From: G965261475 sp965261475 [NCBI: bacterium]
GTDB taxonomy: Bacteria > SAR324 > XYD2-FULL-50-16
NCBI GenBank assembly: GCA_965261475.1
Contig: OZ253454.1
Location: forward strand, 310,001-374,000
Direction of reading: 5' to 3'
Length of the DNA: 64,000 nt
Positions 7,256 to 64,000 of the stretch are shown here, piece after piece. Position numbers and translations under genes: made by a program. The notes under the pieces were generated by a model that saw only the letters and a list, made by a program, of their open reading frames with translations, had not been told where the DNA came from and made no database searches. Within the stretch, counting starts at the first letter, position 1. Each line of letters opens with the position of its first letter.

Positions 7256-7263
7256 AAAATAGT

Positions 7264-10139: not shown

Positions 10140-10182
10140 CTTCTCTAATTTGTTATTGGATAATCTCTTTGATTGTACGATT

Positions 10183-16209: not shown

Positions 16210-16222
16210 AAATCTGGGTTAT

Positions 16223-33616: not shown

Positions 33617-33698
33617 CTTTTTTTATAAATACCCACTCCGCTAGCAGATTGATAATAAAATAAACATCAGTAATTAAAATACTAATCTAATAAAAAAT

Positions 33699-47187: not shown

Positions 47188-47781
47188 GGCTAAAATTATA
47201 ATAATGAATAGCAAAATTTAAATGGAATTAGAATAGCAGCAATTTTAGCGGTAGAAAATCAAATATACCAACCAGTCGCACAGGTTACAATTTACAATTA
47301 TCTTGTTGTCAAATCCATCCACAAACATTTAGTTTTGATTTAGTAAGCTACGAAGAGGATGAACAGCAACAAAAAGAGTGGTAAGATATTATTATAGAGT
47401 ATAAAACAGTCAATTCACTGGTTTTAGCAGAGAGAATTTACTGCGAGAGTATATGATTACCAGAGTGTTATAAACTAAAATAGTATCAGAGTTAGTCAAC
47501 ACATATTTTCAGCTTCTGGAAATAATATTTTAATCCCAATGGGGCTCCTCGGATTGCTACAATATCAACAAAATGGGGTTGCTAAACAAAGCCGACTGGC
47601 TATGGAAATAGTTAGAATTACGATGCCTAATAAGCTTACAATAGTTTTTTTCGTAAATAATACTGCTAATATTTTAAGCTCTCAAGCCATCCAAGAAATT
47701 TTTGGTACTTCTAACGAAACAGATATAGCAGATGCCATAGGTAATTTTTAGATAGTGTCGAAGATCAAAAGATGTTTTTTG
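47188..47781. other. Decayed region with one short frame
   Basis: A 70-residue frame (47539-47751, MGLLGLLQYQQNGVAKQSRL) has no recognised family. The preceding 350 bases contain only broken frames. Both are probably relics of the element that carried the pilin gene. Confidence 0.45.
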
Positions 47782-47817
47782 GTTGTGATTTGAGGACAAA
47801 GCTTGTAGATTGTTAGT
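47782..47817 (+). CRISPR. Orphan CRISPR repeat 1
   Basis: A 36-bp match to the repeat of the main array, with one change (AAAGCTTG in place of AAATCTTG). It stands 14 kb from cas9 and has no regular spacer. A fadD fragment begins immediately after its last base. Confidence 0.95.
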
Positions 47818-48062
47818 TGGATGTTGATGCCGATGATAAAAAGAGCCTAGAAGACCCGCAGGTTAAGTAATTTATGCTCGATAAAATTGCCCAACAACTA
47901 ACCTAATTCCCGGGTTACGCATTCATCAGACAGGTTACTCTGAGTAATGATGTGTGGAGCGTGAGTGATGGTGCTATTACCCTGACCCTAAAACTCAAAC
48001 GAGCGGTACTGATGCAACGATTTGACACCGACATTGAGCAGATGTACAACGAATATGGATAG
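47818..48062 (+). pseudogene. 3' fragment of a long-chain fatty-acid-CoA ligase (fadD-like)
   Basis: Directly after the orphan repeat, one frame reads DADDKKSLEDPQVK, then MLDKIAQQLT, FPGYAFIRQVTLSNDVW, LTLKLKRAVLMQRFDTDIEQ and MYNEYG. That is the conserved C-terminus of AMP-forming acyl-CoA ligases. Two stop codons interrupt it. The 5' part is absent: the homology starts exactly at the repeat border. Confidence 0.85.
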
Positions 48063-48264
48063 ATCGTATCGGAAGTATGTCTTGAAAGTAGAGAAACTGA
48101 AACAACATGAATTCACCTCCTTCACTTATACATAGCATGATAAAGACGCTAAAAACTTTCTTAAAAACTTTCTGGATATATCGTTTTTTCAAAAAATATT
48201 GTTTTTACATTATTACCTATCCCCGACGTGCAGACAACCTGGTTTGTCTCATCGGTATTGAATT

Positions 48265-48300
48265 GTTGTGATATGAGGACAAATCTTGTAGATTGTTAGT
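48265..48300 (+). CRISPR. Orphan CRISPR repeat 2
   Basis: A 36-bp match to the array repeat with one change (GATATGAGG in place of GATTTGAGG). It lies 447 bp after orphan repeat 1. On its other side a sieB-like gene on the minus strand is cut off at its C-terminus. Confidence 0.95.
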
Positions 48301-48708
48301 TTGTTTCCATACCTTGATCCAAGATATACAATATTCTTAGAATAAAGACATCTTATTATAACATCTTCTTTTTGATGTATTGTACCGTTTTTTTCTTGTA
48401 TAATATAGGGAAGTAAATATTTTTGCTCTTCTGGAGTCAGTAAGTGGAGTATTTTATTTCTATTTTTTATATTTTTTACAAAGAAAATTGAAATAATGTG
48501 TAAGTATTACTGTTACAAAGAATATAAATAATATTAATATATAAACTTTATACTCATCTAATAATAAATTGAGCCTAAGTATCTCTTTAAAACTCAATAA
48601 TATTAAAATTATTCCAAAGAAAATAGAAAAAAAGATGCTAATTAAAAAACAATCCTTTTTGAGTAAAGAATATATTTTTTCAAATAATTGAATAAAAATA
48701 ATACTCAT
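48301..48708 (-). pseudogene. SieB-family superinfection exclusion protein, frameshifted and cut by a CRISPR repeat
   Basis: The 82-residue N-terminal part has two membrane helices (FLISIFFSIFFGIILILLSF and VYILILFIFFVTVILTHYF). After an A run near 48460 the family continues in another frame: ILHLLTPEEQKYLLPYIIQ, then VIIRCLYSKNIVYLGSRYGN. It stops at the edge of orphan repeat 2. SieB-type proteins block superinfecting phage from the membrane. The usual ending with an AWEYL-type motif is missing. It is probably of prophage origin and now inactive, unless the A run varies; even then the tail is lost. Confidence 0.78.
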
Positions 48709-48730
48709 TAATTTATTTAATTTTGCAATT

Positions 48731-48750
48731 ACCCTGTATTCTAGGTAGTT
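48731..48750 (+). repeat. Short intergenic repeat (ACCCTGYATACTAGGTAGY type)
   Basis: A 20-bp motif occurs here, at 49746-49764 and at 49812-49830, always between genes. A shorter reverse-strand copy is at 46507-46520. The copies differ at one or two bases. The role is unknown. Confidence 0.7.
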
Positions 48751-48859
48751 ATTATGATTTTTTATATTATAATTGCTTATTATAACTTTTACCTACGAGA
48801 TGAGAATCTTTTTTGTCTTTGATCTTCTACTCGAGGCATTTACCAGAAGGAAAAATAAT

Positions 48860-49147
48860 CTATTTAAAAAAATCAATAGCACTATTGATTTTATCCCTAT
48901 CTTTTTTAAGATGATTAAATAAACCTGATAAAACCATATCTCTAATTGGAAGAGGTACTACAAGAGGAGCTAGGTTTGTATATAATGGAAATTTAGAATC
49001 ACTACCATTGTCAAAATAAAAACCTAATTCTTTCTTACCTTTTCCTGTTTTATCAAGATTTTTATGATTATACCAACCATAAATAATTTTAAAATTACCA
49101 TCATCATAAATTGTCTTTGTTTCTTGCCAAGCTTGAATAAATGTCAT
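48860..49147 (-). CDS. Hypothetical protein
   Basis: This is a 95-residue soluble-looking protein (MTFIQAWQETKTIYDDGNFK, then YGWYNHKNLDKTGKGKKELG). No signal peptide, membrane helix or known motif is visible. The composition and clean start suggest a real gene. It stands alone. Confidence 0.55.
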   Translation of the reverse strand: MTFIQAWQETKTIYDDGNFKIIYGWYNHKNLDKTGKGKKELGFYFDNGSDSKFPLYTNLAPLVVPLPIRDMVLSGLFNHLKKDRDKINSAIDFFK

Positions 49148-49352
49148 AATTTAATATTTGTTATTTTTGTAATATAATAAAAAACTATTTTTAGCAAGTT
49201 TTTATATTACTTGAATTACCATGCAAAAAATATAAATATTTTTTACTTGACAATAAAAAATAATATACTATAACATGTTATATGACATATTATGGGTATG
49301 TGTAAACCGATTGCATAGATCGGTATATTAAAAGTATGAAACAATAAGGATT

Positions 49353-49439
49353 ATGAGACAAAAAATGATAGGGGTAATTCCTATAATTTTAGTGCTAATT
49401 CTATTTGGTTTTATGATTTTCTATCCTTTAGGAAAATAG
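49353..49439 (+). CDS. 28-residue single-helix membrane peptide
   Basis: The frame MRQKMIGVIPIILVLILFGF, then MIFYPLGK, follows a clear AAGGA ribosome-binding site. It consists of one hydrophobic helix with a basic N-terminus. It may be a toxin-like or regulatory small membrane protein; the call rests on the start signal and composition only. Confidence 0.45.
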   Translation: MRQKMIGVIPIILVLILFGFMIFYPLGK

Positions 49440-49536
49440 TAAACCAATTTTTAATTAAATATAGCTAGCGATATCCTAAAATTGCTTGCTAAATTTAAAT
49501 GATATTGATGTTAATATTTATATTTTTAATAATAAG

Positions 49537-49743
49537 ATGGATAAAATAGAAGCGTTATTGTCGGTTTATGAGCTAATTTTGGGTTTTCTCATAATTGCTA
49601 TATTTGGTATAGCTAGTTTGATATATAAAAATTATTCAGATTCTAAGAAAATAGTAGTAATTGAAGTCATTGCTTTTTTGATTTTGACTGCCTTTGTTGT
49701 TGCAGTTTTCTTCAAAATTCACAATCTGATCCTTGGCTTGTGA
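49537..49743 (+). CDS. Small two-helix membrane protein
   Basis: From the ATG at 49537 the product has 68 residues: MDKIEALLSVYELILGFLII, then AIFGIASLIYKNY, SKKIVVIEVIAFLILTAF and VVAVFFKIHNLILGL. There are two hydrophobic helices joined by a Lys-containing loop. The frame is open from 49486, but only from a TTG without support. Function is unknown. An intergenic motif starts right after the stop. Confidence 0.5.
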   Translation: MDKIEALLSVYELILGFLIIAIFGIASLIYKNYSDSKKIVVIEVIAFLILTAFVVAVFFKIHNLILGL

Positions 49744-49745
49744 TT

Positions 49746-49830
49746 ACCCTGCATACTAGGTAGCTTGCTAGCCGAATCGCCGTAGGCTCGTTGCCAATTA
49801 TCCTTGTGATTACCCTGTATACTAGGTAGT
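49746..49830 (+). repeat. Two copies of the short intergenic repeat
   Basis: ACCCTGCATACTAGGTAGC (49746-49764) and ACCCTGTATACTAGGTAGT (49812-49830) are near-identical direct repeats between convergent genes. Confidence 0.75.
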
Positions 49831-49855
49831 CAGCCACCGTATTGTTTTTTTATTT

Positions 49856-50913
49856 TTATCTTTCTTGGGTCCAGTCGGATTGGGAGTTATCCCAGCTCCA
49901 GATGTCGTTCAAAAGGGTAAGATTTGCAATAGTTATGTTATTAAATAAATTACCATCGTAGTAGCCTCCGCCTAGTAGCCAGATTTTATTGTCAAAAACT
50001 ACTGATGCTTGACCATAACGCTGATGCCAGTTGGGTGTGAAGGTCTGAGTATCGCTAGTATTATCAGGGCTAAAACTGATGAGTTCCCTATTGTAATTAT
50101 TACCGGGCGGGATCCGCCCACCTAGGAGCCAGATTTTGTTTTGAAAAGCTACAACAGAAAAAAAATTTCGAGTATTGAGATGAGATTTGGTGTAGTTGAT
50201 ACCATCGCTAGAATACCAAACATAAGCATTCAATCTATTACCGCTTTCATCTGTCAGAATATTACCACTTTCATCTGTGTAATTTTGTTCGAAAACCCAA
50301 ACTTTTTTTCAAAAACAACAGCCTCACTGCCACCTTCAAAAGATTTGTTGCTTCTGCCCTCTAGATACCAATCTTTGCCATTGCCACTACTAAAAATATC
50401 TCCATCAATATTTCCTAGACCAATTATCCACATTTTACTTTTAAAAACAAAGGGATTAGATCCTGCGTATTCCCAAGGAGTATCACTAGTAACAAGATTC
50501 CAGTCTCTACCGTTGGTAGAATCCCAGACATCATTAAGAAAAGTATAATCATCACCATCGGAAGTAACACCACCTAGTAGCCACATTTTATCGTTAAAAA
50601 CAACAGTGCCAAAAGCAGTTCTAGGTTTCCAGCTAGCATCAGAAGTAGCCTGCTGCCAAGCTCTGCCATCATCGCTAAACCAAACATCGTTGAGATTCAC
50701 GCCAGTAGCATCTTTAACAATAACTCCTCCGATAACCCAGATCTTATCGTCAAAACTGAGTGTTTGATGAGCAAATCTAGGTGTAAAGATTTCGTTAGTA
50801 GCAGGAGCAGGCAAGGGTGGCTGATTATCACTAGGACTACTAGGACTACTACTAGGGCTAGCACAAGCTACTAGCAAAACTAAAACAAGAAAAAAAAATA
50901 CTGATTGTTTCAT
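49856..50913 (-). pseudogene. Kelch-type lipoprotein broken by a homopolymer frameshift
   Basis: The N-terminal part has a lipoprotein signal (MKQSVFFFLVLVLLVAC) and kelch-like blades (HQTLSFDDKIWVIGGV, FGTVVFNDKMWLLGGV). At a run of seven T on the plus strand (50303-50309) the frame is lost. Adding one base would continue as KVWVFEQNYTDESGN into the second half (VVAFQNKIWLLGGR, ASVVFDNKIWLLGGG, ending WTQER). It is a third, diverged relative of the genes at 30.8 and 33.7 kb. The run could be phase-variable or an assembly error. Confidence 0.8.
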
Positions 50914-50953
50914 ATACTTACCTAAAATTTTTTTAAGATCTTGAAAAAACATA

Positions 50954-53900
50954 TTAAATATCGATTAAGGTTTCATAATTTATATTATCGTGCGCTAGGT
51001 CTTTGCGGGCAGTTTCATCTGCTGTCTCGTATTCATCTATTTTGTAGTAGATTCTTCGATTATCTAGGCGTTGCCATTTTTCTAGCTCTATTATCATATG
51101 GTTAACAATTGTAGTAGCAGTATAATATTTTTTATATCTTCTTTTATAGGAGTGTCCTTGATAATAATTATCTCTGCAATTAACTGCAATCCCAAATTTA
51201 CGATCGCATCCCCTGCTCTGCCAATAAAAAGTTTGACTGCTTAAATCAATTTCAGTTTGTAAAGTCCAAACAAAAGTAGTAGTAGCGCCATCTCTATTGA
51301 TTTGTGTTGTTGCCGGCTCAGGAGGATTTGTCGAAAATGATGCAGGACCATTACCAACACCGCCCCACTCTCCATAAATCGCTTCATTGATGGTGCTAGC
51401 AGTGCCAGTGCCACCCCTTAATGCACTTTTATTATACTTTTTTGATGCTAAAAAGACATAGGGAATAGGAAAATTTTTTATTCTTTCAGTACCAATAGCA
51501 ACATCAATTTCTGCCGGCATTGTGCCTAGCTCATAGTTCAGCGCTTCAGGCTGTACGCCCGCTATACCTGTATTGATTTCGGTAGCTTTTTCAAACACTC
51601 GCTCCATATTTGCGGTAAAATGATCTTGATATTTCGCTTTTTGATGTTTGAGATTATCATAGAATTCATAGCCTGTAAAGCGTCCAGTAATTATAAAGGA
51701 GCCATACTCAATTCGCGGGCTACAAGATTCTCCTACCTGCCATTCCTGATTAGAATTTTTAAATATTTTTTTAGCATTTATCAAAGCGTAATTTTCTTCT
51801 GAGTACAGAGTAAAAAATAGATTATTTCTATCACCATTGGCGTTGATTTGCGGTTTACCACCTACAAGAATTATGCGGTCTAGGTCTCCATAGATACAAG
51901 TAAAATCGTCTATTAGGTTTGAGCTACCGGTAGCCTCAAGGCTACAACTAGAGAAAGGGTAAACTGTTTCATCGTTAAAAGTATATTTATATTGATAGTA
52001 GCGATGTACCTTGTCGTTAATAAATTTCTGATTTGGGTTACAATTTCCATATTCTTTGGTAAGCGTTATTTGCTCTTGCGTAGTAGCGCACCTATTAAAT
52101 ATTCGCTCGTCGCCATCCTCATCAATAAAATATATTTTTGCTCGTAGAGTCACGCTATTCGTAGCTATATCAACATTGGGCGCACAAGCAGCAAAATCTT
52201 TTAATAAATTTAAATTTTGCGCTGTATCAGGTCGGCAATTTTGCATCGTGTGGACTGGTCCATTTGGTATTTGTAATAGTTTTCTAAAATTTCTGGTACC
52301 AACGGTAAAATCAGCATTGACCGTTATAGAACAAAAGCTGTAGTCTTTCACAAAATAAGGAGTTAGCTCTCTGGTCTCGCCGTTAAATTCACATCCACCT
52401 ACATTGACACTCTCGCCGTTTAGATTTGTATAAAACTTTTGAGCATAGACTTTTAGTAGGTCCCTATCTGCATTTAAGCGCATCACACAGTTGGCAGTTT
52501 CTTCGTTTAGCACAAGAGTAGTTTGCCCGTTAACTTGCCTGCACTCACCCACGAAAAAGATATCATCTCCGTCGGAATAGGTAAATCTGATAGTAGGCGT
52601 GACTATTTTTTGTGTAAAATCTATATTTGCGGGGCAAGATTCTGATGTGGTAGTAAGCGGATAAAAGCTAGTTGATTGCTTACAATCTGAGACGGTAACA
52701 AAATTACCACCTATGGGATAGGTGTCTTTATACTGCGGGGTTACTCGCATATTGTGATAATCAATCATAGGTAGGCACCCACTAAAATCTTTTACTATTT
52801 TTGCTGGATCCTGTGCTAATTCTCTCTGGGTGGGGCTACAAGGAGCCACCACTACTATAGAATCGTTGCTATCTCTAAAATATGTCTGTTGTCTCTCAAA
52901 AATTCTCTGATTGATATAAACAGGGGTGCAAAAAAGTGTATCTGTGATGTGGGCGTAGCTGAGTGATTCATCGATAGCACATTGTGAAACAGAGATGGGG
53001 TTGCCACCTTCTTTTCTGTATGCCCAGCGAAAAAGCTTGTAGCTAATGTTATCTGTAGGGCGATGTTCGTAATTACAAGCTCCATATTCTTTAGTGACAG
53101 GGTAAAAATTATCTTCATCTACTATGACTTCGCTAGTATAGTGAAAATCACCGTCAATTAGAAAATATTTGCGGTAGGTTTGGTAGGCTTTTTTCTCAGA
53201 AAAATTTATTTTCTCGCCGCGCTGGGTTTCTCGCAACTCCTGTGAAAGTGGCAATACTCTGGGGTTCAAAGCTGAAATAAAACAATCAGTGATAAATCTA
53301 ATACTGCCTTCATTATTGATAAAAGTTTTTAGTTGCTGATATAGAGTTCTGGTCGATTCGTCAAAAAAAGAGCTACATTCAGCTTTGATATTGTGGTGTA
53401 AGTAAAAAATGCTGGTATCAGAGCAATTTTTGAGCGTATTTTTTTCGCCATCGTCGTCATAAAAAAAGAATTCTGCTTGTTTGTAGCTTTTTTTAGCGTG
53501 AAAGTCGTGCCTGATGGTGCATCTATCAAAATTTTTGACAATCGGGAATTGGCTGGTGGTGCTACAAGGTAGTATTTTTTTAGTGCCATCTGTGTAGCTA
53601 ATTTCAGTACGAGATTTTACTGTTACAGATAAGCTATTAAAATTAGGGCTAGTGGTGCAAGCGACTAATCTTTGTGATGCGATAATTTTTTCTTTTTCTA
53701 CTGGTTCTTCTGGTGGTGCGCCACCATTTCCACCATCACCGCTACCGGGGACGCTACCACCACCATTTCCACCACCACCGCTACTGGGATCACTTCCACC
53801 ACCACCATTGCCGGGACCGGGAGTAGGGGTAGTAGGAGTAGTATCAAATTCTTCGGAGCGAGAGGTAAAAGTAGCTATATCTGATGCAGCAGAATCAAAC

Positions 53901-54949
53901 GCTTGGGTACTAGTAGTATAAAATGTTGCTAGTCCGCTCTCGGCTAGGTAGGTTGCAGTTTCGGTTGTAATATAGATTTTTTCGCCATCAACTGCTATAT
54001 ATGGCTCACCATCTGGGTCATAATAAATAATAGCATCGCCGTTTAGGATTAAATCACTGATCTCTGGCGGAATGTGATAAGTGATACCTGCTGCGTCAAC
54101 TAGATATAATTCGCCATTGGTGTCGTAATAGACTCTATCGCCATTTGCTGCAATAACGAATTGTCTGCCGTCGCTATCGTAACGGATGATATCTCCATTT
54201 TCTGCAATGATAAATCCCCTATTTTCGGCGTTATAGTAAATTTTATCTCCGTTTTCTGAAAAAATAAATTGTCTGCCGTCGGCGTCGTAGTAAAAAACCT
54301 CAGCATCTTCGAAATCTAGGTCTTCCAGCGAGCCACTATATATAACAGCACTACCGGACGAGATAAGCTCCTCTGCTGCTACTTTTGGTATGTATATTTT
54401 TTCATTATCAATCAATAAAAAAGGTTCACCCTCAGAATCGTAGTAAATCGTAACAGGATCTTCTGGGTTAAATTCACCATTTTTACGCTCAATACGAGCG
54501 ATGATAGAGTCAGCAACTCCTGCTAATAAACCTTTTTGTTTCTTTTTAAAAGTTACAGCTTCTTGTTTTTGTTTATTTTCTTTTTCATTTTCTGCAGAGT
54601 TTGTCTTTGTTTTCTTGCTTTTATCTGCTTTTTTCTTTTTTTCAGCTACTAAATCCTGTAAAGGAATTAAATCAAAAATAGTCCCTTTAGCTATAAAACT
54701 ATCTGTTGTTGCTAGTTTTGAAACATAATCAATTCCGTTTATCTGATTCCATTTGATAAACTGTTTTGAAATTGTGCCGATGCGGCTTTGTGAGTTTTTT
54801 GTTTTTTCATTTAGGATTTTACCAATTACTATTTCACCAGAGATATTTTGTGTTTGGTATTGTGTTTTTATTTTTAAATTTTTAGCTAATAAAAAACTTG
54901 ATAAAATTAAACTAAAAATTAAAACCGAAGATACTAGATATTTTTTCAT
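50954..54949 (-). CDS. Large secreted protein with YD-type repeats, Gly/Pro linker and Cys-repeat domains
   Basis: This 1331-residue protein carries a signal peptide (MKKYLVSSVLIFSLILSSFLLA). Region about 95-135 is Lys-rich. Region about 160-340 has at least six repeats of about 22 residues with YYDxDGxxF and GDxIYY. Region about 375-420 is a Gly/Ser/Pro linker. From about 425 to 1080 about ten units of about 55-60 residues each carry two Cys, often after a segment like TKEYGAC and before a polar xxC, probably disulfide-stabilised. The C-terminal about 250 residues lack Cys repeats. I recognise no enzyme. It may be a surface adhesin or part of a secretion or conjugation machine. Confidence 0.65.
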   Translation of the reverse strand: MKKYLVSSVLIFSLILSSFLLAKNLKIKTQYQTQNISGEIVIGKILNEKTKNSQSRIGTISKQFIKWNQINGIDYVSKLATTDSFIAKGTIFDLIPLQDLVAEKKKKADKSKKTKTNSAENEKENKQKQEAVTFKKKQKGLLAGVADSIIARIERKNGEFNPEDPVTIYYDSEGEPFLLIDNEKIYIPKVAAEELISSGSAVIYSGSLEDLDFEDAEVFYYDADGRQFIFSENGDKIYYNAENRGFIIAENGDIIRYDSDGRQFVIAANGDRVYYDTNGELYLVDAAGITYHIPPEISDLILNGDAIIYYDPDGEPYIAVDGEKIYITTETATYLAESGLATFYTTSTQAFDSAASDIATFTSRSEEFDTTPTTPTPGPGNGGGGSDPSSGGGGNGGGSVPGSGDGGNGGAPPEEPVEKEKIIASQRLVACTTSPNFNSLSVTVKSRTEISYTDGTKKILPCSTTSQFPIVKNFDRCTIRHDFHAKKSYKQAEFFFYDDDGEKNTLKNCSDTSIFYLHHNIKAECSSFFDESTRTLYQQLKTFINNEGSIRFITDCFISALNPRVLPLSQELRETQRGEKINFSEKKAYQTYRKYFLIDGDFHYTSEVIVDEDNFYPVTKEYGACNYEHRPTDNISYKLFRWAYRKEGGNPISVSQCAIDESLSYAHITDTLFCTPVYINQRIFERQQTYFRDSNDSIVVVAPCSPTQRELAQDPAKIVKDFSGCLPMIDYHNMRVTPQYKDTYPIGGNFVTVSDCKQSTSFYPLTTTSESCPANIDFTQKIVTPTIRFTYSDGDDIFFVGECRQVNGQTTLVLNEETANCVMRLNADRDLLKVYAQKFYTNLNGESVNVGGCEFNGETRELTPYFVKDYSFCSITVNADFTVGTRNFRKLLQIPNGPVHTMQNCRPDTAQNLNLLKDFAACAPNVDIATNSVTLRAKIYFIDEDGDERIFNRCATTQEQITLTKEYGNCNPNQKFINDKVHRYYQYKYTFNDETVYPFSSCSLEATGSSNLIDDFTCIYGDLDRIILVGGKPQINANGDRNNLFFTLYSEENYALINAKKIFKNSNQEWQVGESCSPRIEYGSFIITGRFTGYEFYDNLKHQKAKYQDHFTANMERVFEKATEINTGIAGVQPEALNYELGTMPAEIDVAIGTERIKNFPIPYVFLASKKYNKSALRGGTGTASTINEAIYGEWGGVGNGPASFSTNPPEPATTQINRDGATTTFVWTLQTEIDLSSQTFYWQSRGCDRKFGIAVNCRDNYYQGHSYKRRYKKYYTATTIVNHMIIELEKWQRLDNRRIYYKIDEYETADETARKDLAHDNINYETLIDI

Positions 54950-55195
54950 AATTCATTTTAGGAATAAACAGAAGGGAAAAAATAAAACAAGTGTAGTTTC
55001 TACACTATTTTAGTTCTTCTCTTTTTTTTAATATCTGTAAATTAGGTATTTGAAACAATACCCGTTAAGTAGTTGGTAAGAGTAGAATCAATATTTTAAA
55101 TAGTGATCCTTGCTCTAAAAATTGGATACTATTTTTGTTTTACTAGAAGTAAAAAATAATGTCAAGAAGAAATATATCAATGAAATAGTTTTTAA

Positions 55196-55267
55196 TATAC
55201 TATGTATACTATGTATACTATGTATACTATGTATACTATGTATACTATGTATACTATGTATACTATG
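55196..55267 (+). repeat. 9-bp tandem repeat TATACTATG, eight copies
   Basis: Eight perfect units end 49 bases before the next start codon. Each unit contains TATACT, a good -10 hexamer, so the tract offers several overlapping promoter positions. Confidence 0.95.
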
Positions 55268-55316
55268 TATATCTATAGTATGACAATAGTGTGTAATTAA
55301 AAAAAATAAAATAACT

Positions 55317-55958
55317 ATGAATAATTTACTTTTTTTTCTCAGTCAATATGAAATCCCAATTTTTGTGATTTTTGTTATTTGGGCAACTTGGAAAGTGGGA
55401 CGGTTTTTTAAGGCTTTAGAAAATACAGAAAATAAACAAAGTGATGATATAAAAAATTTAGGAAAAATAACAGAAAAACAAAACACTGAGTTAAATAAAC
55501 AGAGTTATGATATAAAAAATTTAGACACTAAGTTAAATAAACAAGGTATTGAGTTAAATAAACATGGTAATGATATAATTGAAATCAAAACTAAACTGAA
55601 TTTAATTTTATCAAAATTAATATCTCATTCTATTCTTAAATCTACTAGTCCAATCAATTTAACAGATTCAGGTAAAAGAATTGCTAAAATGATGAAAGCA
55701 GATGATATTATCAATAAAAATTTAAAACAATTTAAAAAATTTATAGATAAAGATGATCCTAAAACACCCTACGATTTACAACAAACTTGTTTCTTTGTAG
55801 TTGATAAAAATATTAAAGATATACTAACCACACCTGAAATAAATATTGCAAAACAAGAATCAGTAAAAAATGGAATACCACTGGATCATACTTTATCGCT
55901 ATTTGCAATTCTATTAAGAGATAAATTACTAGCAGAAAAAGGCTGGAAAATTAAATAA
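55317..55958 (+). CDS. Membrane-anchored coiled-coil protein of unknown function
   Basis: This 213-residue protein has an N-terminal membrane helix (EIPIFVIFVIWATWKVGRFF) followed by a heptad-like coiled coil with repeated LNKQ/IKNL units (about 40-100). Its C-terminal domain starts at SPINLTDSGKRIAKMM and has TPYDLQQTCFFVVDKNIKDIL and LFAILLRDKLLAEKGW. The C-terminal part looks like a conserved module of unassigned function. An upstream 9-bp repeat tract may vary its expression. Confidence 0.6.
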   Translation: MNNLLFFLSQYEIPIFVIFVIWATWKVGRFFKALENTENKQSDDIKNLGKITEKQNTELNKQSYDIKNLDTKLNKQGIELNKHGNDIIEIKTKLNLILSKLISHSILKSTSPINLTDSGKRIAKMMKADDIINKNLKQFKKFIDKDDPKTPYDLQQTCFFVVDKNIKDILTTPEINIAKQESVKNGIPLDHTLSLFAILLRDKLLAEKGWKIK

Positions 55959-56427
55959 AAATCTTTATATTTTTTTTCCTTCTGTTTATTTTCTGCTGAG
56001 CCAATAGGCTCAGGTATGCAAGCTTTAGCTTGCTAATGCGATTGTTGAGCGAAGCGAAAACAATATATCTTTGTTTTAATTTCCTAATATTTTTATCTTT
56101 TTGATGATTTTTCTACTCACTAGTATCATTAGTTTCATTAGTATATAAGCAGTATCTATAGTAGATAATTTGTTTTAAGCATATAAAGCAAGGTAATTTT
56201 TGATATTATGGTGGAGTATCTGATAGGTTAAGTGGAGTAATATGATAGATAGAGTGGAGTAATCTGATAAGAAAATCTTTGATTTTGAGTTTTTAGCCTT
56301 TTTGCCCCTTACAGAGAGAATTACTTTTAGAGTAGATTGTCATAATTCTTAGATAACATAAGGTTTTAGTGGTGGAGTAATCTGATAGATAGATAATTTT
56401 AGTTAATTTTTGAAGGATGATTTAATG
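55959..56427. other. Intergenic region with four imperfect 20-bp repeats
   Basis: No gene is visible. The motif GTGGAGTAATCTGATAGATA, with small changes, occurs at about 56211, 56232, 56254 and 56372. The region ends directly at a CRISPR repeat. Confidence 0.6.
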
Positions 56428-56529
56428 GTTGTGATTTGAGGACAAATCTTGTAGCTTGTTAGTAATTACTGGATCTTTGACGCAGGAAAGGTGGTTGTGA
56501 TTTGAGGACAAATTTTGTAGCTTGTTAGT
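56428..56529 (+). CRISPR. Two-repeat CRISPR segment with variant repeats
   Basis: Repeats at 56428-56463 and 56494-56529 flank one 30-bp spacer. Both carry TAGCTTG where the main array has TAGATTG; the second also has AAATTTTG. The same AGCTTG variant occurs in the repeat at 57458. These degenerate repeats mark the old (trailer) side of the locus. Confidence 0.95.
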
Positions 56530-56610
56530 TGATGCTTTTGAGGAATTCCTTAATAGTAAACTCAAAAAAATATAAAGGTTGCATAATATTAAACATAAAT
56601 AATAAATAAT

Positions 56611-57096
56611 ATGGAATATACACATAACGATTATTTACTAGGCTACAGACCTACAGAGATGCTACAAATAAACGATTTAAGTTTAATAAATGAGGCAAAA
56701 CAAGCAGTAGAAGCTGAGGGCAAAGAGCTATATGTAGAAAATGAACTACTCAAAAAATATTGCAAGAGCGTTTTGAAAGTAGCACAGCAAAAAATAAATT
56801 CTTACCTTGTATATGGTCAGCATTGGTACGCTATGAAAAGAGTACTAGCAGAGCAAGGCTTCCTTGACCCAGACGAGGTACAAGAAACCGAATATACTAC
56901 ACTAGCTAATTTATTTACACGACAAAAACCTATAGCTACTATGATTGCTGGAATAAAATACGCAAACGAGGTAGGTAATAACTTCTTTTTAGGTGAGAGT
57001 ACTAGCAGAATTGTTGCTATAGAATTTACTAAAAGAGGCGATGATGAAGATACACGACATTTTGATTTTGTTGTTGAGGACTTACTAGAATTTTAA
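56611..57096 (+). CDS. Hypothetical protein in a long inter-repeat segment
   Basis: This is a 161-residue, acidic, largely helical protein (MEYTHNDYLLGYRPTEMLQI; INSYLVYGQHWYAMKRVLAE; LFTRQKPIATMIAGIKYANE). No signal or membrane segment is seen. It is complete and lies between CRISPR repeats, next to truncated phage- or plasmid-like genes. Function is unknown; a phage origin is likely from context. Confidence 0.55.
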   Translation: MEYTHNDYLLGYRPTEMLQINDLSLINEAKQAVEAEGKELYVENELLKKYCKSVLKVAQQKINSYLVYGQHWYAMKRVLAEQGFLDPDEVQETEYTTLANLFTRQKPIATMIAGIKYANEVGNNFFLGESTSRIVAIEFTKRGDDEDTRHFDFVVEDLLEF

Positions 57097-57114
57097 GTTT
57101 ATCTTTAGCTATCT

Positions 57115-57457
57115 ATGGCAACTACTACAGAAACTACAAATAATAAGATTACTACAGAGCAAAATATCTTTCAAAAAACACTAGATTTTTTAAGAAAGGC
57201 ACGGAGCAAAATAGTAATATTATAGATAACCTTGATAGTCATGACCCTCGCTCTCCTTACAATCTACATTACTTTGGCGGTCATACTAAACAACAACTAG
57301 TACAGTTTAATAGGTATTTAGCAGATAATGCTAGAATATTACCTGTTTCTAGGCGTTTTAGTATGTATGCGTTAGAGGCAATGTCTGTTGACCCGCTAAT
57401 TTATTCTGCAATGGCAATACATATTAACAATGTCTTAAATCCGAACGAGGAAGGCAA
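57115..57457 (+). pseudogene. Frameshifted gene fragment cut by a CRISPR repeat, possibly phage structural
   Basis: The ATG at 57115 opens MATTTETTNNKITTEQNIFQ. At a run of six T (57186-57191) the frame is lost. One extra T would continue as KGTEQNSNIIDNLDSHDPRS, then PYNLHYFGG, RRFSMYALEAMSVDPLIYSA and MAIHINNVLNPNEEG, up to the repeat at 57458. The segment around DPLIYSAMAIHI recalls phage portal proteins, but this is tentative. Confidence 0.55.
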
Positions 57458-57493
57458 GTTGTGATTTGAGGACAAATCTTGTAGCTTGTTAGT
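57458..57493 (+). CRISPR. Single CRISPR repeat between two long segments
   Basis: A 36-bp repeat of the AGCTTG variant. To its left are 928 bp and to its right 324 bp of gene-bearing DNA, where 30-bp spacers would be expected. Confidence 0.95.
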
Positions 57494-57536
57494 GCACCTT
57501 TATTTAACTATATTCAAAGCATACAGGAGACAAAAA

Positions 57537-57805
57537 ATGAACAAAGACGAACAAATGATATACGGAGGATGGGGGGGGGTAAGCCTATTAAACCACATAA
57601 TACGGGAATTTCCTCAAACTTACAAGTATCTCAAAACAAGCGGACAAACAGTAAAAGTGATGTTAATGATTTTGAAAGAACTAAATACAGTAGCCAACGG
57701 GATGGACATACAAGATCCTCGCAGACCAGAGATAATAAACAAATATATCCACATATCAGAAACAGATTTGAAAAAGTATATCAAGTATTAGAAGTTACAG
57801 GTTAA
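57537..57805 (+). pseudogene. Gene with a poly-G tract, two alternative frames
   Basis: An AGGAGA ribosome-binding site precedes the ATG at 57537 (MNKDEQMIYGGW). A run of nine G (57571-57579) follows. With nine G the frame gives VSLLNHIIREFPQTYKYLKT and so on to 57791. With ten or seven G it gives GGKPIKPHNTGISSNLQVSQ and so on to 57805. Either may be the native product, so the gene is phase-variable or decayed. No family was recognised. Confidence 0.5.
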
Positions 57806-57817
57806 ATACACGAAGGT

Positions 57818-57985
57818 GTTGTGATTTGAGGACAAATCTTGTAGATTGTTAGTTAATTTTTATTTTGTATCACTTGCCACTGGGTTGTGATTTGAGGACA
57901 AATCTTGTAGATTGTTAGTAGTAAAGCTAGTACTGACCCCATAATAATTGTTGTGATTTGAGGACAAATCTTGTAGATTGTTAGT
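57818..57985 (+). CRISPR. Three-repeat CRISPR segment
   Basis: Canonical repeats at 57818, 57884 and 57950 are separated by two 30-bp spacers, with the same 66-bp period as the main array. After the last repeat comes a 658-bp gene-bearing segment in place of a spacer. Confidence 0.97.
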
Positions 57986-58400
57986 TGTATACCTTGACAT
58001 AGATACAAATCACCAAATAGATAACCTAATGCAATATAGTGAAATTAAAGAACAAGTTGATTTTCAAGAAATTCTCGAGAAAATTCCAGAGTTTTTAAAA
58101 AGACTAAAAACAAGTATTAAAGAATTAACAAAATTATTCGAAGAGAGTATTTATGATGATACTAATGATGAGTTAGCAGAAGAACAAGAATTTAACGAAT
58201 CTAATGCAATAAATTGCGCCAATATGATTTTAGAGGAAATATATGCTGAAATTTTTGAGGGGCTTGATAGTTTTCAAGTTGATAAAAAATATCCAGAAAT
58301 TAAAAAAATAATAGAACCAATCTCTGCTATTTGTTTTGAGCTTAAAACTTGCATCACAAAATTACATGGTGTGCCTTGGACTTATGAAGAATGTTATTAG
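57986..58400 (+). CDS. Hypothetical helical protein, possibly truncated at its 5' end by a CRISPR repeat
   Basis: The frame is open right from the repeat border (VYLDIDTNHQIDNL) and then has an ATG at 58029 (MQYSEIKEQVDFQEILEKIP). It ends KTCITKLHGVPWTYEECY. It is an acidic helical protein of about 123 residues if it starts at 58029. It is followed by a ParA start, so it may belong to a plasmid maintenance region. No family was recognised. Confidence 0.5.
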
Positions 58401-58436
58401 CAGCATAAAAATTTTACAAATATCAAAATAAATATA

Positions 58437-58643
58437 ATGAAAGTAATTAGTTTTTATAATGAAAAAGGTGGTGTTGGTAAATCAACAATAATCATCAATA
58501 CTGCTATAGAGCTTGCCAAACATCAAAAAAAAGTGTTGTTGATAGATTGTGATCCACAAGCAAATACAACCGCTTTCTTTGTTAAAAGAAGCGGTAAAAA
58601 TTATGATGAATTAAAACCATTTTTAGAACAAGAAAGCGTTAAT
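58437..58643 (+). pseudogene. ParA ATPase, truncated by the CRISPR array
   Basis: The first 69 residues are a clear ParA/Soj start: VISFYNEKGGVGKSTIIINT with the deviant Walker A (10-17) and LLIDCDPQANTTAFF. The coding sequence runs straight into the first repeat of the main array at 58644 and stops within it. About three quarters of a ParA protein are missing. ParA partitions plasmids or chromosomes; this copy is a plasmid- or phage-like fragment. Confidence 0.9.
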
Positions 58644-61600
58644 GTTGTGATTTGAGGACAAATCTTGTAGATTGTTAGTGATAATAATTACCTCCTCATA
58701 AGCTACCTCGTTGTGATTTGAGGACAAATCTTGTAGATTGTTAGTGAGTAATGAATAGTAATATAGACACAGGTAGTTGTGATTTGAGGACAAATCTTGT
58801 AGATTGTTAGTAGACCAGTCTATAGCACTAGCAAAGTACCTGTTGTGATTTGAGGACAAATCTTGTAGATTGTTAGTAAATTCTTGTACTGCATCACTTG
58901 CTCTTTTGTTGTGATTTGAGGACAAATCTTGTAGATTGTTAGTCTATAAAAAATACAATTATGCTTAAAGTAAGTTGTGATTTGAGGACAAATCTTGTAG
59001 ATTGTTAGTTTTCATTTTTGTTTATGTTTGATTTTTAGTGTTGTGATTTGAGGACAAATCTTGTAGATTGTTAGTCACGAAGCAGAGGAGCTATACTACA
59101 AAGAAGTTGTGATTTGAGGACAAATCTTGTAGATTGTTAGTCACGAAGCAGAGGAGCTATACTACAAAGAAGTTGTGATTTGAGGACAAATCTTGTAGAT
59201 TGTTAGTCACGAAGCAGAGGAGCTATACTACAAAGAAGTTGTGATTTGAGGACAAATCTTGTAGATTGTTAGTAGGCTTAAAAAATAAAAGAATAACAAA
59301 TAGGTTGTGATTTGAGGACAAATCTTGTAGATTGTTAGTTATCTCTTTGAAATAGTATTTTTCTTTATTGTTGTGATTTGAGGACAAATCTTGTAGATTG
59401 TTAGTACATTTAATTTGTACGCCTTTAGTTTCAAAGTTGTGATTTGAGGACAAATCTTGTAGATTGTTAGTTGCGATTGCTTTTTATCGCTGGATAGATG
59501 GGTTGTGATTTGAGGACAAATCTTGTAGATTGTTAGTAGTTAAGCCACAAAGAGTAGCTGTTAGATAGTTGTGATTTGAGGACAAATCTTGTAGATTGTT
59601 AGTTAAAAATATTGCACCCCTTTATCGTTCCAAGTTGTGATTTGAGGACAAATCTTGTAGATTGTTAGTTAGCTCAAGATGCAATACCAGCAGTACCAGG
59701 TTGTGATTTGAGGACAAATCTTGTAGATTGTTAGTTTTGTTTGTTATCTATGTATTAGTATGGGTGTTGTGATTTGAGGACAAATCTTGTAGATTGTTAG
59801 TAGTTTCGTAACGAACAAGTAGTGTCTATTTGTTGTGATTTGAGGACAAATCTTGTAGATTGTTAGTTCTTATTTGTAGGGCAAGACATTGACGACAGTT
59901 GTGATTTGAGGACAAATCTTGTAGATTGTTAGTGCTCAGGAGCATAGGAGAGTACAAAGACGGGTTGTGATTTGAGGACAAATCTTGTAGATTGTTAGTC
60001 ATACTTTTAGCTATATTGATTTATCTAATGTTGTGATTTGAGGACAAATCTTGTAGATTGTTAGTCTTAAATATAAAATTAAGCTTGCTAAACTTGTTGT
60101 GATTTGAGGACAAATCTTGTAGATTGTTAGTCATACTTTTAGCTATATTGATTTATCTAATGTTGTGATTTGAGGACAAATCTTGTAGATTGTTAGTCTT
60201 AAATATAAAATTAAGCTTGCTAAACTTGTTGTGATTTGAGGACAAATCTTGTAGATTGTTAGTTATCAAAAAGATAGTATAGCGAGATTATCCGTTGTGA
60301 TTTGAGGACAAATCTTGTAGATTGTTAGTAAACATCATAAAACCTGATTCTAAACATCAGTTGTGATTTGAGGACAAATCTTGTAGATTGTTAGTTTTAT
60401 ATTTTTATTAGAGACGAATTTATAAGTTGTGATTTGAGGACAAATCTTGTAGATTGTTAGTGGTTTCTTCCCCCTTCCGTTGGAATAATTAGTTGTGATT
60501 TGAGGACAAATCTTGTAGATTGTTAGTTTTCTATTATATCATCAATAGTTATTTCTGGTTGTGATTTGAGGACAAATCTTGTAGATTGTTAGTTTGGTTG
60601 GAGTTTACCCGCTCTACCTTTGGGTTGTGATTTGAGGACAAATCTTGTAGATTGTTAGTTTAAAGGCTTTGGCGAGGATGTAACTTCTAGTTGTGATTTG
60701 AGGACAAATCTTGTAGATTGTTAGTTGCAGAGAGGTTCTCCAGTTTATTTTGATAGTTGTGATTTGAGGACAAATCTTGTAGATTGTTAGTAGAATTTTT
60801 ATACTTAAGATTGCAAGAGGCGTTGTGATTTGAGGACAAATCTTGTAGATTGTTAGTGACGGGAGAAAAGTATGTTAAGAACCCAGAGTTGTGATTTGAG
60901 GACAAATCTTGTAGATTGTTAGTCTACAACATTTGGAGTAATTGAAGGCTTTAGTTGTGATTTGAGGACAAATCTTGTAGATTGTTAGTTCTTATTCTCA
61001 TTTACTCTGTCGTCATTGTGTTGTGATTTGAGGACAAATCTTGTAGATTGTTAGTCTGCGACTTTTCATTACACAACCAAAAAGAGTTGTGATTTGAGGA
61101 CAAATCTTGTAGATTGTTAGTAAATTAAAATAGCACTCAAACCAGACCAACGTTGTGATTTGAGGACAAATCTTGTAGATTGTTAGTTTAAGGTTTTGAT
61201 TACAATATTGACACCTGGTTGTGATTTGAGGACAAATCTTGTAGATTGTTAGTGTTTGTTATTATCAGTAGGCGATGACTTTGGTTGTGATTTGAGGACA
61301 AATCTTGTAGATTGTTAGTAATTGATGAAAGTTATACTATACACCCTATGTTGTGATTTGAGGACAAATCTTGTAGATTGTTAGTTCTTGTATGCTCTTG
61401 AGCTTGCCGTTCTCAGTTGTGATTTGAGGACAAATCTTGTAGATTGTTAGTACTTCTAATAGCCATTTATGATCATTGTAAGTTGTGATTTGAGGACAAA
61501 TCTTGTAGATTGTTAGTTTGGCAGAGATAGAAGTGTTATAACTATAGGTTGTGATTTGAGGACAAATCTTGTAGATTGTTAGTTATAAGAAACAACTTGT

Positions 61601-61715
61601 CATTGTACTTGACGTTGTGATTTGAGGACAAATCTTGTAGATTGTTAGTGTGTGAAGGTGTGTTGTCTGGTATGTATATGTTGTGATTTGAGGACAAATC
61701 TTGTAGATTGTTAGT
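58644..61715 (+). CRISPR. Main type II-C CRISPR array: 47 repeats, 46 spacers
   Basis: Repeats are 36 bp (beginning GTTGTGATTTGAGGAC, ending GATTGTTAGT) with 30-bp spacers and a strict 66-bp period from 58644 to the last repeat at 61680. I saw no repeat variants inside this block in the lines I checked. Spacers 7, 8 and 9 (59076, 59142, 59208) are identical. Spacers 21-22 (60000, 60066) are repeated as 23-24 (60132, 60198). The GTTG start of the plus-strand repeat is typical of type II repeats, so crRNAs may be read on the plus strand, opposite to the cas genes. Degenerate repeats on the left suggest that new spacers enter at the right, beside cas2. Confidence 0.97.
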
Positions 61716-61765: not shown

Positions 61766-62107
61766 CTAAAAAAGGACAAGCTGTTGTGTGGGTTTTTCTG
61801 GTTTTTTTCTCATTTTTCCAAAAAAAACCAGCATTTTTGAAAATTGTTTATCTGTAAATTTGAGGATACGAATGTGTCCTTCTTCTGGTATGGCTCGTTT
61901 TATTCTTTGGATATGCACTTGTGCGTTTTCCTCGCTAGCTGTGTGACGAGCATAGACAGAAAACTGCATCATATCAAAACCATTTTGTAGTAAATTTTTT
62001 CTAAAATTAGTATATCTAATCTTAGCCTTTGGTGTATCTGTCGGCAAATCAAACATAACCATAATCCACATAGTTCTATAGCCTCCAAAAATTTTTGTTT
62101 GCTTCAT
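61766..62107 (-). CDS. cas2: CRISPR-associated endoribonuclease Cas2
   Basis: This 113-residue protein has the ferredoxin-like core MWIMVMFDLPTDT (from about residue 13), TNFRKNLLQNGFDMMQFSVYAR and GHIRILKFTDKQF. It is typical of type II-C Cas2 and bridges two Cas1 dimers during spacer integration. The start overlaps the cas1 stop by 4 bases. Confidence 0.95.
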   Translation of the reverse strand: MKQTKIFGGYRTMWIMVMFDLPTDTPKAKIRYTNFRKNLLQNGFDMMQFSVYARHTASEENAQVHIQRIKRAIPEEGHIRILKFTDKQFSKMLVFFGKMRKKPEKPTQQLVLF

Positions 62108-62994
62108 TTTGCAAGAAATTTTGGTATCAAAAAATCTTTGCTTTGTTTTAAAAGTCTCTTCTTAAAAGATGCTACATAAATTTGCACGCCTGTAAATAGT
62201 AGGTAGGAAGTTTCTGCTAATTGGCAGTAGTTAGTTAACAGCCCTAAAATCTTTTTTTTAATCTCTGGGGTGAGCTCGCTGGGAATTTCTTTGGAGCAAA
62301 TTTGAAAAACTTGGCGATCGACCATAGGTCGTAAGGGCTCCATCAAATCGTCTGCTAGGCAAAAAACATTATACTGATTGCTGTGGTGGATGCCTATTGC
62401 AGGGTGTAATCCTGTAGCAGCAATAGCACGAGCAACTAAACCTCGCATAATAGCGTAACCATAATTTAATAAAGAGTTGATTCCTATTTGTTGAAAATTT
62501 CTACAAAATGTTTTTCCAAAGAGTTTTTTCCAGTAGATTTTTGCTGCTTGCCCCTCCAAATTAGAAGTATCACCGCTGAGAATTCTTTGAGATATTTGTT
62601 GCAAACCAAAATTTTTGTGACAGCAGAGCTCTAGATTTTGAGCTTGCTCTTTGATTTTTGCTTGTATAATGGATTGCCATAGCCTTTTTTGTAATGCTTT
62701 GCTTGCGCTAAATTGCTGATGAATGATTTTGTGGTGTAGTGTATTGCTAGAGGTTGGGTAGAGAATAGCGTGTGGCAGGTGCTGATTATTACACAGAATG
62801 ACACAGGTATTGTTTGCTAAACACTGGTTTAGCAAGGACTGGCTATAGCTCAAAGCTGGGTTATCTAGCACTAAAACCCCGATGTCTTCTATAGGTATAG
62901 AGCTCCTTGCTCCTTGCTCTTTTTTGAAGTAAAGTTGACGATTTCTAGTAAAAAGATAGCCCGCAGAGCTAATCTCTACAATTCTTTTAATCAT
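62104..62994 (-). CDS. cas1: CRISPR-associated integrase Cas1 (type II)
   Basis: This 296-residue protein shows IVEISSAGYLFTRNRQLYF, IPIEDIGVLVLDNPALSYS, the metal-site region NLEGQAAKIYWKKLFG (with Glu) and ATGLHPAIGIHHSNQYNVFC followed by LADDLMEPLRP (His and Asp ligands). It is intact and of normal length. It integrates new spacers together with Cas2. Confidence 0.96.
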   Translation of the reverse strand: MIKRIVEISSAGYLFTRNRQLYFKKEQGARSSIPIEDIGVLVLDNPALSYSQSLLNQCLANNTCVILCNNQHLPHAILYPTSSNTLHHKIIHQQFSASKALQKRLWQSIIQAKIKEQAQNLELCCHKNFGLQQISQRILSGDTSNLEGQAAKIYWKKLFGKTFCRNFQQIGINSLLNYGYAIMRGLVARAIAATGLHPAIGIHHSNQYNVFCLADDLMEPLRPMVDRQVFQICSKEIPSELTPEIKKKILGLLTNYCQLAETSYLLFTGVQIYVASFKKRLLKQSKDFLIPKFLAK

Positions 62995-63032: not shown

Positions 63033-64000
63033 CTAAACTTCAGAGTTTATAGCTTCTCCTAGAGAATTTAATTTTAGTTTTTGAGGCGAGTATTTAAGTA
63101 GACTAGTTTCTGTTAGCCGCAGTATACCTTTTGTACCCTCTCCTTGATCGCCTGTCTCTGCTCTGGTATGCTGCCTAAATGTAATTTTTGCAATTTTATC
63201 TTTTCCTTGAGAGAGTTTTTGCACTCTATAGTAATCATCTATGAGCTCACCCTTATCGGTTTTACCCTTCAAATAAAACATATCGTTAATCTTGAGGTGC
63301 AACAGGTACTTATATCCTGCTCTTTCTTTTTGAATAATGCTCTGTTTTTTTGCTTTTCTAGTAGCTGCTGTAAAAGTAGCTACCACTTGTGATTCTATTT
63401 TTTTGGTTTGAAGATTCTCAAAAATAATCAAATGGTGGTTGCTTCCTAGCTGGTAGTACTTATAAGGTACGCCTTGAGAGTTGCGAACTGGCATAACATT
63501 AGTCAATTGTTCTAAAACCCTGACCTTGCGAATAGCATTTTTATTTTGATGTATGAGACCTTGAGAGCATAATTCTTTCCGTTTTGTTTCAAACTTCTTA
63601 TTACCAGTAATTTTTGCTATTTGCTCTGTTATAAGCTCTCTGACATACTTATCGGTAATTTTTGCTAATTGAGCCTCGGTTAAATTTTCTAGGGCTACCC
63701 TATGAGTGTAGGAATACTCTTTATCTTTGATTTTTATAGGCTTTGGCATTTTACCGTAAGCAGTTTCTTTGTGTAGGGCACCTTTGAGATACTGATCTGG
63801 ACACTTGTAGTGGGATACTACAATTTTCGCTAGTTTTTCGTCTAATTGGTTTTTGCTAAAAGTATTTTTGATGTCCTCTGGGATTCTTAATCCCTTTTTT
63901 ATACCTATAATACTATTATTTTGATATTCCACAGAATCTTTGCTAATTTGCTGTACTAGTTTTATCTCTGTTAATCCTACCATAATAGCGTCTATGGCGT
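63033..64000 (-). CDS. cas9: Cas9 endonuclease, C-terminal part (type II-C; 5' end outside window)
   Basis: The minus-strand frame is open to the window edge and begins AIDAIMVGLTEI, the third RuvC motif (H-x-x-D-A type) of Cas9, so the gene continues beyond the window. The rest is the C-terminal and PAM-interacting region: DQYLKGALHKETAYGKMPKP, LEQLTNVMPVRNSQGVPYKY, GYKYLLHLKINDMFYLKG and DDYYRVQKL. It ends TSLLKYSPQKLKLNSLGEAI. The pattern fits compact type II-C Cas9 proteins. The PAM cannot be predicted from here. The tracrRNA is not visible in the window and may lie upstream of cas9. Confidence 0.95.
   Translation of the reverse strand, partial: AIDAIMVGLTEIKLVQQISKDSVEYQNNSIIGIKKGLRIPEDIKNTFSKNQLDEKLAKIVVSHYKCPDQYLKGALHKETAYGKMPKPIKIKDKEYSYTHRVALENLTEAQLAKITDKYVRELITEQIAKITGNKKFETKRKELCSQGLIHQNKNAIRKVRVLEQLTNVMPVRNSQGVPYKYYQLGSNHHLIIFENLQTKKIESQVVATFTAATRKAKKQSIIQKERAGYKYLLHLKINDMFYLKGKTDKGELIDDYYRVQKLSQGKDKIAKITFRQHTRAETGDQGEGTKGILRLTETSLLKYSPQKLKLNSLGEAINSEV

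What the first reader, a model, noticed from the sequence alone, without database searches (positions are those of the whole stretch)
56428..58679. CRISPR locus with three spacer positions filled by 324-928 bp gene-bearing segments
Reading left to right: repeats at 56428 and 56494, then 928 bp (56530-57457), a repeat at 57458, then 324 bp (57494-57817), repeats at 57818, 57884 and 57950, then 658 bp (57986-58643), then the regular array. The variant repeat (AGCTTG) is shared by 56428, 56494 and 57458, so this was one linear array. Each long segment carries foreign-looking genes, and several are cut exactly at the repeat border (parA at 58643, the portal-like fragment at 57457, the open frame at 57986). 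Two explanations: integration of very long pre-spacers, or homologous recombination between spacers and their protospacers on an invading plasmid or phage that replaced repeat-spacer units by the DNA between them. Either would be a little-described route for capturing foreign DNA.
Basis: partly seen in the sequence, partly recalled or inferred. Interest (0 to 1): 0.92.

Follow-up and report, generated by a model that had tools for sequence, protein, structure and literature searches.

The report
CRISPR array holding gene-length spacers
The oldest end of a bacterial immune-memory (CRISPR) array holds pieces of phage, plasmid and other genes of 324 to 8,127 bases where 30-base memory tags should sit, probably because the system sometimes stores untrimmed DNA.

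Summary
Two further repeats, one mismatch each, lie at 47782 and 48265. The array has 54 interspaces: 49 of 30 bp and five of 447, 8127, 928, 324 and 658 bp, all among the eight furthest from cas2 (P = 1.8e-5), the end expected to be oldest (PMC6008519, passages). The locus has cas9, cas1, cas2.

Genes are cut at repeat borders: portal, parA, FadD, and on weaker matches SieB and VirB10. No transposase was found in the ORFs tested; segment ends are not alike.

Among 97 arrays surveyed beside type II cas1 genes, two others have such an interspace at the cas-distal end (L116, 127 bp; L117, 953 bp); L257 is doubtful. It recurs but is rare.

Best reading: Cas1-Cas2 occasionally integrates untrimmed DNA, and the pieces survive at the stable distal end. 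Spacer-protospacer recombination is the main rival. No donor or PAM was found, so the mechanism is unproven.

The parts
47818..48264 (+). 447-bp interspace: C-terminal fragment of a FadD-type fatty acid-CoA ligase gene with two in-frame stops, cut at the left repeat border, then non-coding
   Evidence: NCBIfam NF038343 E 1.2e-5, residues 4-78 of 80, profile 509-583 of 585; no Pfam match at E<=1
48265..48300 (+).
48301..56427 (-). 8127-bp interspace: SieB-like fragment cut at its left border (minus strand), decayed genes, kelch-type ORFs (my reading), 1331-aa ORF, 213-aa ORF, 22-bp iteron-like repeats near its right end; perhaps composite
   Evidence: (SieB E 0.0027, below its gathering score)
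56428..56529 (+). repeat, 30-bp spacer, repeat (AGCTTG variant in both)
56530..57457 (+). 928-bp interspace: 161-aa ORF (phrog_1629, E 1e-9) and N-terminal portal fragment, frameshifted, cut at the right border
57458..57493 (+). CRISPR repeat (AGCTTG variant)
57494..57817 (+). 324-bp interspace: two overlapping short ORFs around a run of G, no convincing family match
57818..57985 (+). three consensus repeats and two 30-bp spacers
57986..58643 (+). 658-bp interspace: ORF open at the left border without relatives, then the N-terminal 69 codons of a ParA ATPase cut at the right border
58644..61715 (+). regular array: 47 consensus repeats, 46 spacers of 30 bp, some duplicated
61766..62107 (-). cas2
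   Evidence: TIGR01573 E 4.5e-22
62104..62994 (-). cas1, type II clade; E147, H204, E219 invariant in the six sequences aligned
   Evidence: TIGR03639 E 1e-84
63033..63998 (-). C-terminal 321 aa of cas9 (gene runs out of the window)
   Evidence: 33% identical to the C-terminus of a relative's 1018-aa protein that matches solved Cas9; no direct Pfam, NCBIfam or PDB hit
46888..47781 (+). left flank: VirB2/TrbC-like pilin ORF and decayed VirB10-like remnant next to the outermost repeat
   Evidence: PF04956 E 0.0013, below its gathering score; VirB10/ComB10 models E 0.0014-0.0022, far below their cut-offs

Best explanation
This is the cas-distal, oldest end of a type II-C-like CRISPR array in which the adaptation machinery stored DNA pieces far longer than 30 bp. 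Inferred steps: Cas1-Cas2 takes both ends of a foreign fragment that was not trimmed to 30 bp and joins them to the two sides of the first repeat; repair duplicates the repeat, so the piece ends up bounded by two full repeats and its genes are cut at the repeat edges. Later normal acquisitions push it away from cas2. In mid-array such pieces are lost by repeat-repeat recombination; at the outer end, where repeats have diverged, they persist. Shown: the anatomy, the cut genes, the position, the recurrence in two other arrays. Inferred: the integration event and the retention step. The 8127-bp interspace probably needs a second event, such as a later insertion, on top.
For: All ten segment borders are formed by full-length repeats with at most two mismatches. 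Family matches run almost to the border: portal to residue 88 of 90, FadD from residue 4 of 80, in L116 a RelE/ParE-type toxin gene over residues 3-40 of the 41 that its 127 bp encode; so there is no leftover 30-bp spacer at those borders. Segment ends share no long direct repeat. Lengths of 127 to 953 bp in three arrays with different repeats look like a continuum. Cas1 keeps E147, H204 and E219, presumably the E149, H206, E221 reported as active sites of a II-C Cas1 (PMC6008519, passages; I did not align that protein). In type II-A in vitro, Cas1-Cas2 without Cas9 and Csn2 integrated unprocessed substrates, and longer spacers did not impair immunity (PMC8034620, passages and section 19). New II-C spacers enter next to cas2 (PMC6008519); a review proposes that the terminal unit rarely takes part in rearrangements (PMC8047081, passages).
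Against: No donor element and no PAM were found. All five long interspaces are old, and the 46 newest are exactly 30 bp. Spacers acquired in the laboratory were 30-31 bp in type II-C (PMC6008519) and mostly 30-31 bp in type II-A in vivo (PMC8034620). I saw no report of kilobase integration by Cas1-Cas2; the substrate lengths in PMC8034620 were not read. 8127 bp is very long for a prespacer. The FadD piece is a chromosomal-type gene rather than a typical mobile one. Repeat variants run A, A, C, C, C, A from the outer end, which needs a back mutation or conversion if repeats are copied in order.
Confidence: 0.48

Rival explanations
1. Spacer-protospacer recombination: two neighbouring spacers from one invader recombined with their protospacers, replacing the repeat between them by the invader DNA that lies between.
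For: Explains exact borders, cut genes and any length, including 8127 bp. Recombination between spacers and phage targets is reported (Varble et al. 2019, cited in the review PMC8616872, passages; the paper itself is not held).
Against: Needs two spacers from one element on one strand, in order and close together, then exchange over 30 bp, five times here and again in L116 and L117. The 12 bases after the first 30 of each segment show no motif common to all five by eye, but the PAM is unknown, so this is weak.
Confidence: 0.22
2. Foreign DNA was captured at breaks in the array, for instance at repeat-edge nicks left by failed integration or Cas9 autoimmunity, and joined by end repair.
For: Arbitrary ends, mixed sources (phage, plasmid, FadD) and varied length fit.
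Against: Ten borders with full repeats on both sides are hard to get without the integrase's own cut sites.
Confidence: 0.12
3. Ordinary insertion of mobile elements into spacers or repeats.
For: The surveys have clear cases: a mutator-family transposase inside a repeat in L166 and a DDE transposase in L133. The kelch-type ORFs of the 8127-bp interspace were not scanned against a family library.
Against: No transposase match in the segment proteins that were scanned; no matching terminal repeats; gene homology reaches the repeat edge at the portal and FadD borders.
Confidence: 0.06
4. Recombination between array repeats and a solitary CRISPR repeat carried by a phage or plasmid.
For: Proposed for solitary repeat units (PMC8616872, passage); would give exact repeat borders.
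Against: A carried repeat is unlikely to sit inside portal, parA, FadD and SieB genes; the repeat core has no exact match in viral contigs or genome contigs.
Confidence: 0.04
5. Assembly chimera joined through the repeats.
For: No reads and no whole genome were available.
Against: Identical tandem spacer units are resolved, a repeat is only 36 bp, and the same architecture occurs in L116 and L117.
Confidence: 0.06

Closest known systems
Type II-C CRISPR-Cas locus (cas9-cas1-cas2, array after cas2; Neisseria and Riemerella type)
   Same: gene order, 36-bp repeats, 30-bp spacers, type II Cas1, divergent distal repeats
Phage-CRISPR spacer recombination in staphylococci (Varble et al. 2019; seen only as cited in PMC8616872)
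   Same: invader DNA joined to the array at spacers
   Different: as I recall it, that is integration or transduction by crossover at a spacer; here the two ends of each segment differ and four of five pieces are under 1 kb
Insertion sequences and prophages in CRISPR loci (PMC10359306, passages)
   Same: long DNA interrupts a CRISPR locus
   Different: no transposase in the ORFs tested, no terminal repeats, borders at repeat edges
Untrimmed prespacer integration in vitro (PMC8034620, section 19)
   Same: Cas1-Cas2 alone places unprocessed DNA between repeats
   Different: type II-A, in vitro; the lengths tested were not read by me

Membership tests
Type II-C CRISPR-Cas | type II cas1 and cas2 beside the array | tested here: met
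   TIGR03639 E 1e-84, TIGR01573 E 4.5e-22
Type II-C CRISPR-Cas | cas9 upstream of cas1 | tested here: met
   homology to the C-terminus of a protein that matches solved Cas9; direct searches empty
Type II-C CRISPR-Cas | no csn2 or cas4 | tested here: inconclusive
   only 50 bp lie between cas2 and the array; the far side of cas9 is outside the window
Type II-C CRISPR-Cas | tracrRNA | tested here: inconclusive
   outside the array no ungapped reverse complement of the repeat better than 12 mismatches of 36; the expected place lies outside the window
Long-prespacer integration | segment contiguous in a donor, PAM only beyond its right end | tested here: inconclusive
   no donor found
Long-prespacer integration | full repeats on both sides, DNA continuous to the repeat edge | tested here: met
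   repeats at all ten borders; continuity shown by homology at the portal and FadD borders, not at the others
Spacer-protospacer recombination | PAM directly after the first 30 bp of the segment | tested here: inconclusive
   sequences listed; PAM unknown
Spacer-protospacer recombination, single crossover | same 30-bp spacer at both ends | tested here: not met
Insertion sequence or prophage insertion | transposase or integrase, terminal repeats | tested here: not met
   kelch-type ORFs at 49856-50952 not scanned
Insertion sequence or prophage insertion | target duplication inside one spacer, empty site in a sister strain | not testable with these tools
   no sister strain held

The most novel reading that the evidence does not exclude
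Type II-C Cas1-Cas2 can integrate gene-length foreign DNA in nature, so CRISPR arrays of some bacteria act as an archive, and perhaps a route of capture, for pieces of phages, plasmids and other genomes hundreds of bases long, kept at the stable old end.
Probability: 0.42. Interest if true: 0.8.

Novelty: new variant of a known kind. Interest (0 to 1): 0.62.

Why it matters
How Cas1-Cas2 fixes spacer length, above all in type II-C systems that lack Csn2 and Cas4, is open. A natural array with five oversize interspaces, and two others with the same, gives concrete substrates for testing whether trimming can fail and whether gene-length integration follows. It would also mean that part of an array's oldest record is readable as genes, which points to past invaders better than 30 bp can. 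Ten full-text searches did not show a description of this in the listings and passages I saw (at most 20 papers listed per search); subscription papers and preprints are mostly not held.

Tried and rejected
Sources: tblastn in phages found nothing for the 161-aa ORF, the portal fragment and the L117 methyltransferase; tblastn in plasmids nothing for the 137-aa ORF, while ParA matches at least 5000 plasmids, up to residue 58 of 69 in the rows shown. The 324-bp ORFs were not searched this way. Viral contigs: no relative of the 161-aa ORF, the portal fragment, Cas1 or the L117 methyltransferase; no match to two spacer-derived peptide patterns. blastn of the array in phages: 134 records at E up to 10, each covering about 1% of the query or less in the rows seen (15, 60); best E 0.003 in the parA part, otherwise 0.1 to 6, including exact 22-23-bp matches at E 2-6; the other rows were not seen. 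In plasmids: 148 records, 40 rows seen, all over the parA part, best 75% identity, E 5e-13. blastn of the 928-bp segment in phages: two matches at E 1. No second copy of the L117 or L116 segments in their own genomes.

PAM: not obtainable. Spacers against the window found duplicated spacers and matches with 8-9 mismatches. Translated spacers against segment proteins: best score 30, equalled by 4 of 60 shuffled sets.

Rejected: Campbell integration at one spacer (segment ends differ); transposon insertion (no transposase in the ORFs tested, no terminal repeats); the outer repeat having been inserted into an intact FadD gene (what lies left of it matches VirB10, weakly, not FadD).

Survey rows. 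Scored stretches: 55 stretches, 46 arrays, 842 normal interspaces, 34 stretches (two of them, L221 and L222, extra flanks of loci in the first set), 25 arrays (one, the second in L200, of another repeat type), 566, 40 stretches, 26 arrays, 553. In all 129 stretches, 97 arrays, 1961 normal interspaces; five arrays with any interspace over 48 bp: L116, L117, L166 (transposase in a repeat), L257 (333 bp before an 8-mismatch repeat, no family match), L266 (irregular repeats). Dropped: of 23 strong places, 18 were fetched, 2 used as first found, 3 left out (one, L102, had shown no array); of 31, 1 left out; of 33, none; of 52, 34 fetched, 5 fetched before, 13 left out, 11 of these close to a contig end; of 10, 6 fetched, 2 fetched before, 2 left out. 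Many contigs end near the array, so distal ends are often missing and the rate is a lower bound. Thirty weak-hit loci, presumably other CRISPR types, gave 21 arrays and 611 normal interspaces, five arrays with long ones: L133 DDE transposase, L134 cas1 and other genes between repeats, L137 a small element with inverted ends, L181 poor repeats, L183 unexplained.
Full report
Observation. A scan of the whole window adds repeats at 47782 and 48265, each with one mismatch; chance would give about 3e-15 such hits. The array has 55 repeats and 54 interspaces, 49 of them 30 bp (45 distinct) and five long: numbers 1, 2, 4, 5 and 8 from the outer end. All five fall among the outer eight of 54, P = 1.8e-5.

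Setting. cas2 and a type II cas1 lie at the other end. The partial ORF beyond them is the C-terminus of Cas9, by homology to a relative's protein that matches solved Cas9 structures, though it has no direct family or PDB match.

What the segments are. 447 bp: end of a FadD-type ligase gene, homologous from residue 4 of 80. 8127 bp: begins with a SieB-like fragment, a weak match, and ends near 22-bp iteron-like repeats. 928 bp: a 161-aa ORF of a phage family and the start of a portal gene, matched to residue 88 of 90. 324 bp: short ORFs without convincing relatives. 658 bp: an ORF without relatives, then the first 69 codons of a ParA ATPase. Left of the outermost repeat lie a VirB2/TrbC-like pilin and a VirB10-like remnant, both weak matches. 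No transposase appeared among the ORFs scanned (the kelch-type ORFs were not scanned), and the outer 45 bases of each segment share no direct repeat over 6 bp or inverted repeat over 8 bp.

Is it unique? Five arrays have any interspace over 48 bp. L166 is a transposon inside a repeat and L266 has irregular repeats. L117 has 953 bp between two perfect repeats at the cas-distal end, with an ORF tail open at one border and a methyltransferase ORF running to the other. L116 has 127 bp at the distal end that is an internal fragment of a RelE/ParE-type toxin gene; its second, 433-bp, interspace rests on a 9-mismatch repeat. L257 is doubtful. So the phenomenon recurs, in roughly 2 to 3 of 97 arrays, and this window with five is by far the most extreme seen. 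In the comparison set of 21 arrays from weak cas1 hits, five have long interspaces: a transposase, cas genes between repeats, a small element with inverted ends, one with poor repeats, and one (L183) unexplained.

Mechanism. Gene homology reaches the repeat edge at the portal and FadD borders and across the L116 segment, so these do not sit inside older 30-bp spacers. The two ends of each segment differ, which excludes single-crossover integration at a spacer. Remaining are integration of untrimmed DNA by Cas1-Cas2, two-spacer recombination, and capture at breaks. The first is the simplest: one failed trimming step per event, with a precedent in vitro in type II-A, where Cas1-Cas2 alone integrated unprocessed substrates (PMC8034620, section 19); the same paper finds 30-31 bp for most spacers acquired in vivo. 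Distal clustering fits retention: a review proposes that terminal units rarely take part in rearrangement (PMC8047081, passages). Two-spacer recombination would handle 8127 bp more easily but needs improbable spacer pairs repeatedly. Without a donor or a PAM I cannot decide between them; the bases that would show an internal PAM are listed and show no motif shared by all five by eye.

Verdict. Real, recurrent and rare; a new variant of a known kind, CRISPR arrays, with an unproven route of origin.

Noticed in passing
window 48723, 49738, 49804: Three copies of a 26-bp sequence (TTGTGATTACCCTGYATACTAGGTAG, 0-3 mismatches, none expected by chance), two of them 66 bp apart: perhaps the remnant of a second CRISPR array with another repeat.
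   Followed up: partly
window 47782-57818: Repeat variants run A, A, C, C, C, A at the AGATTG/AGCTTG site from the outer end, which simple copying of the newest repeat does not give.
   Followed up: no
window 59076-60227: Spacer CACGAAGC... present three times in a row and a two-spacer block duplicated: recent array rearrangement.
   Followed up: no
window 57854 and 58878: Two different spacers share TGYATCACTTGC in the same register, as if aimed at one site in related phages (seen by eye).
   Followed up: no
window 56464-56493: Reverse translation of the outermost 30-bp spacer resembles the ParA peptide at the very end of the 658-bp segment (PFLRQRSSN / PFLEQESVN); equalled by 4 of 60 shuffled sets.
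   Followed up: partly
window 58427-58564: The parA piece of the 658-bp segment is about 75% identical in DNA to a gene region of a Spiroplasma plasmid, the best of 148 plasmid records (40 rows seen).
   Followed up: no
window 55196-55281: About nine copies of the 9-bp unit TATACTATG in tandem inside the 8127-bp interspace.
   Followed up: no
window 2566-19160: Defence-type genes: type I restriction subunits, SIR2-like and HerA-like proteins, a DndB-domain protein.
   Followed up: no
window 30794-34730 and 49856-50952: Kelch-type proteins inside the 8127-bp interspace (my reading) and elsewhere in the window, a hint that part of that interspace is host-like.
   Followed up: no
L183 7373-7960: 517-bp interspace between a 3-mismatch and a perfect repeat in a presumably non-type-II array, unexplained.
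   Followed up: no
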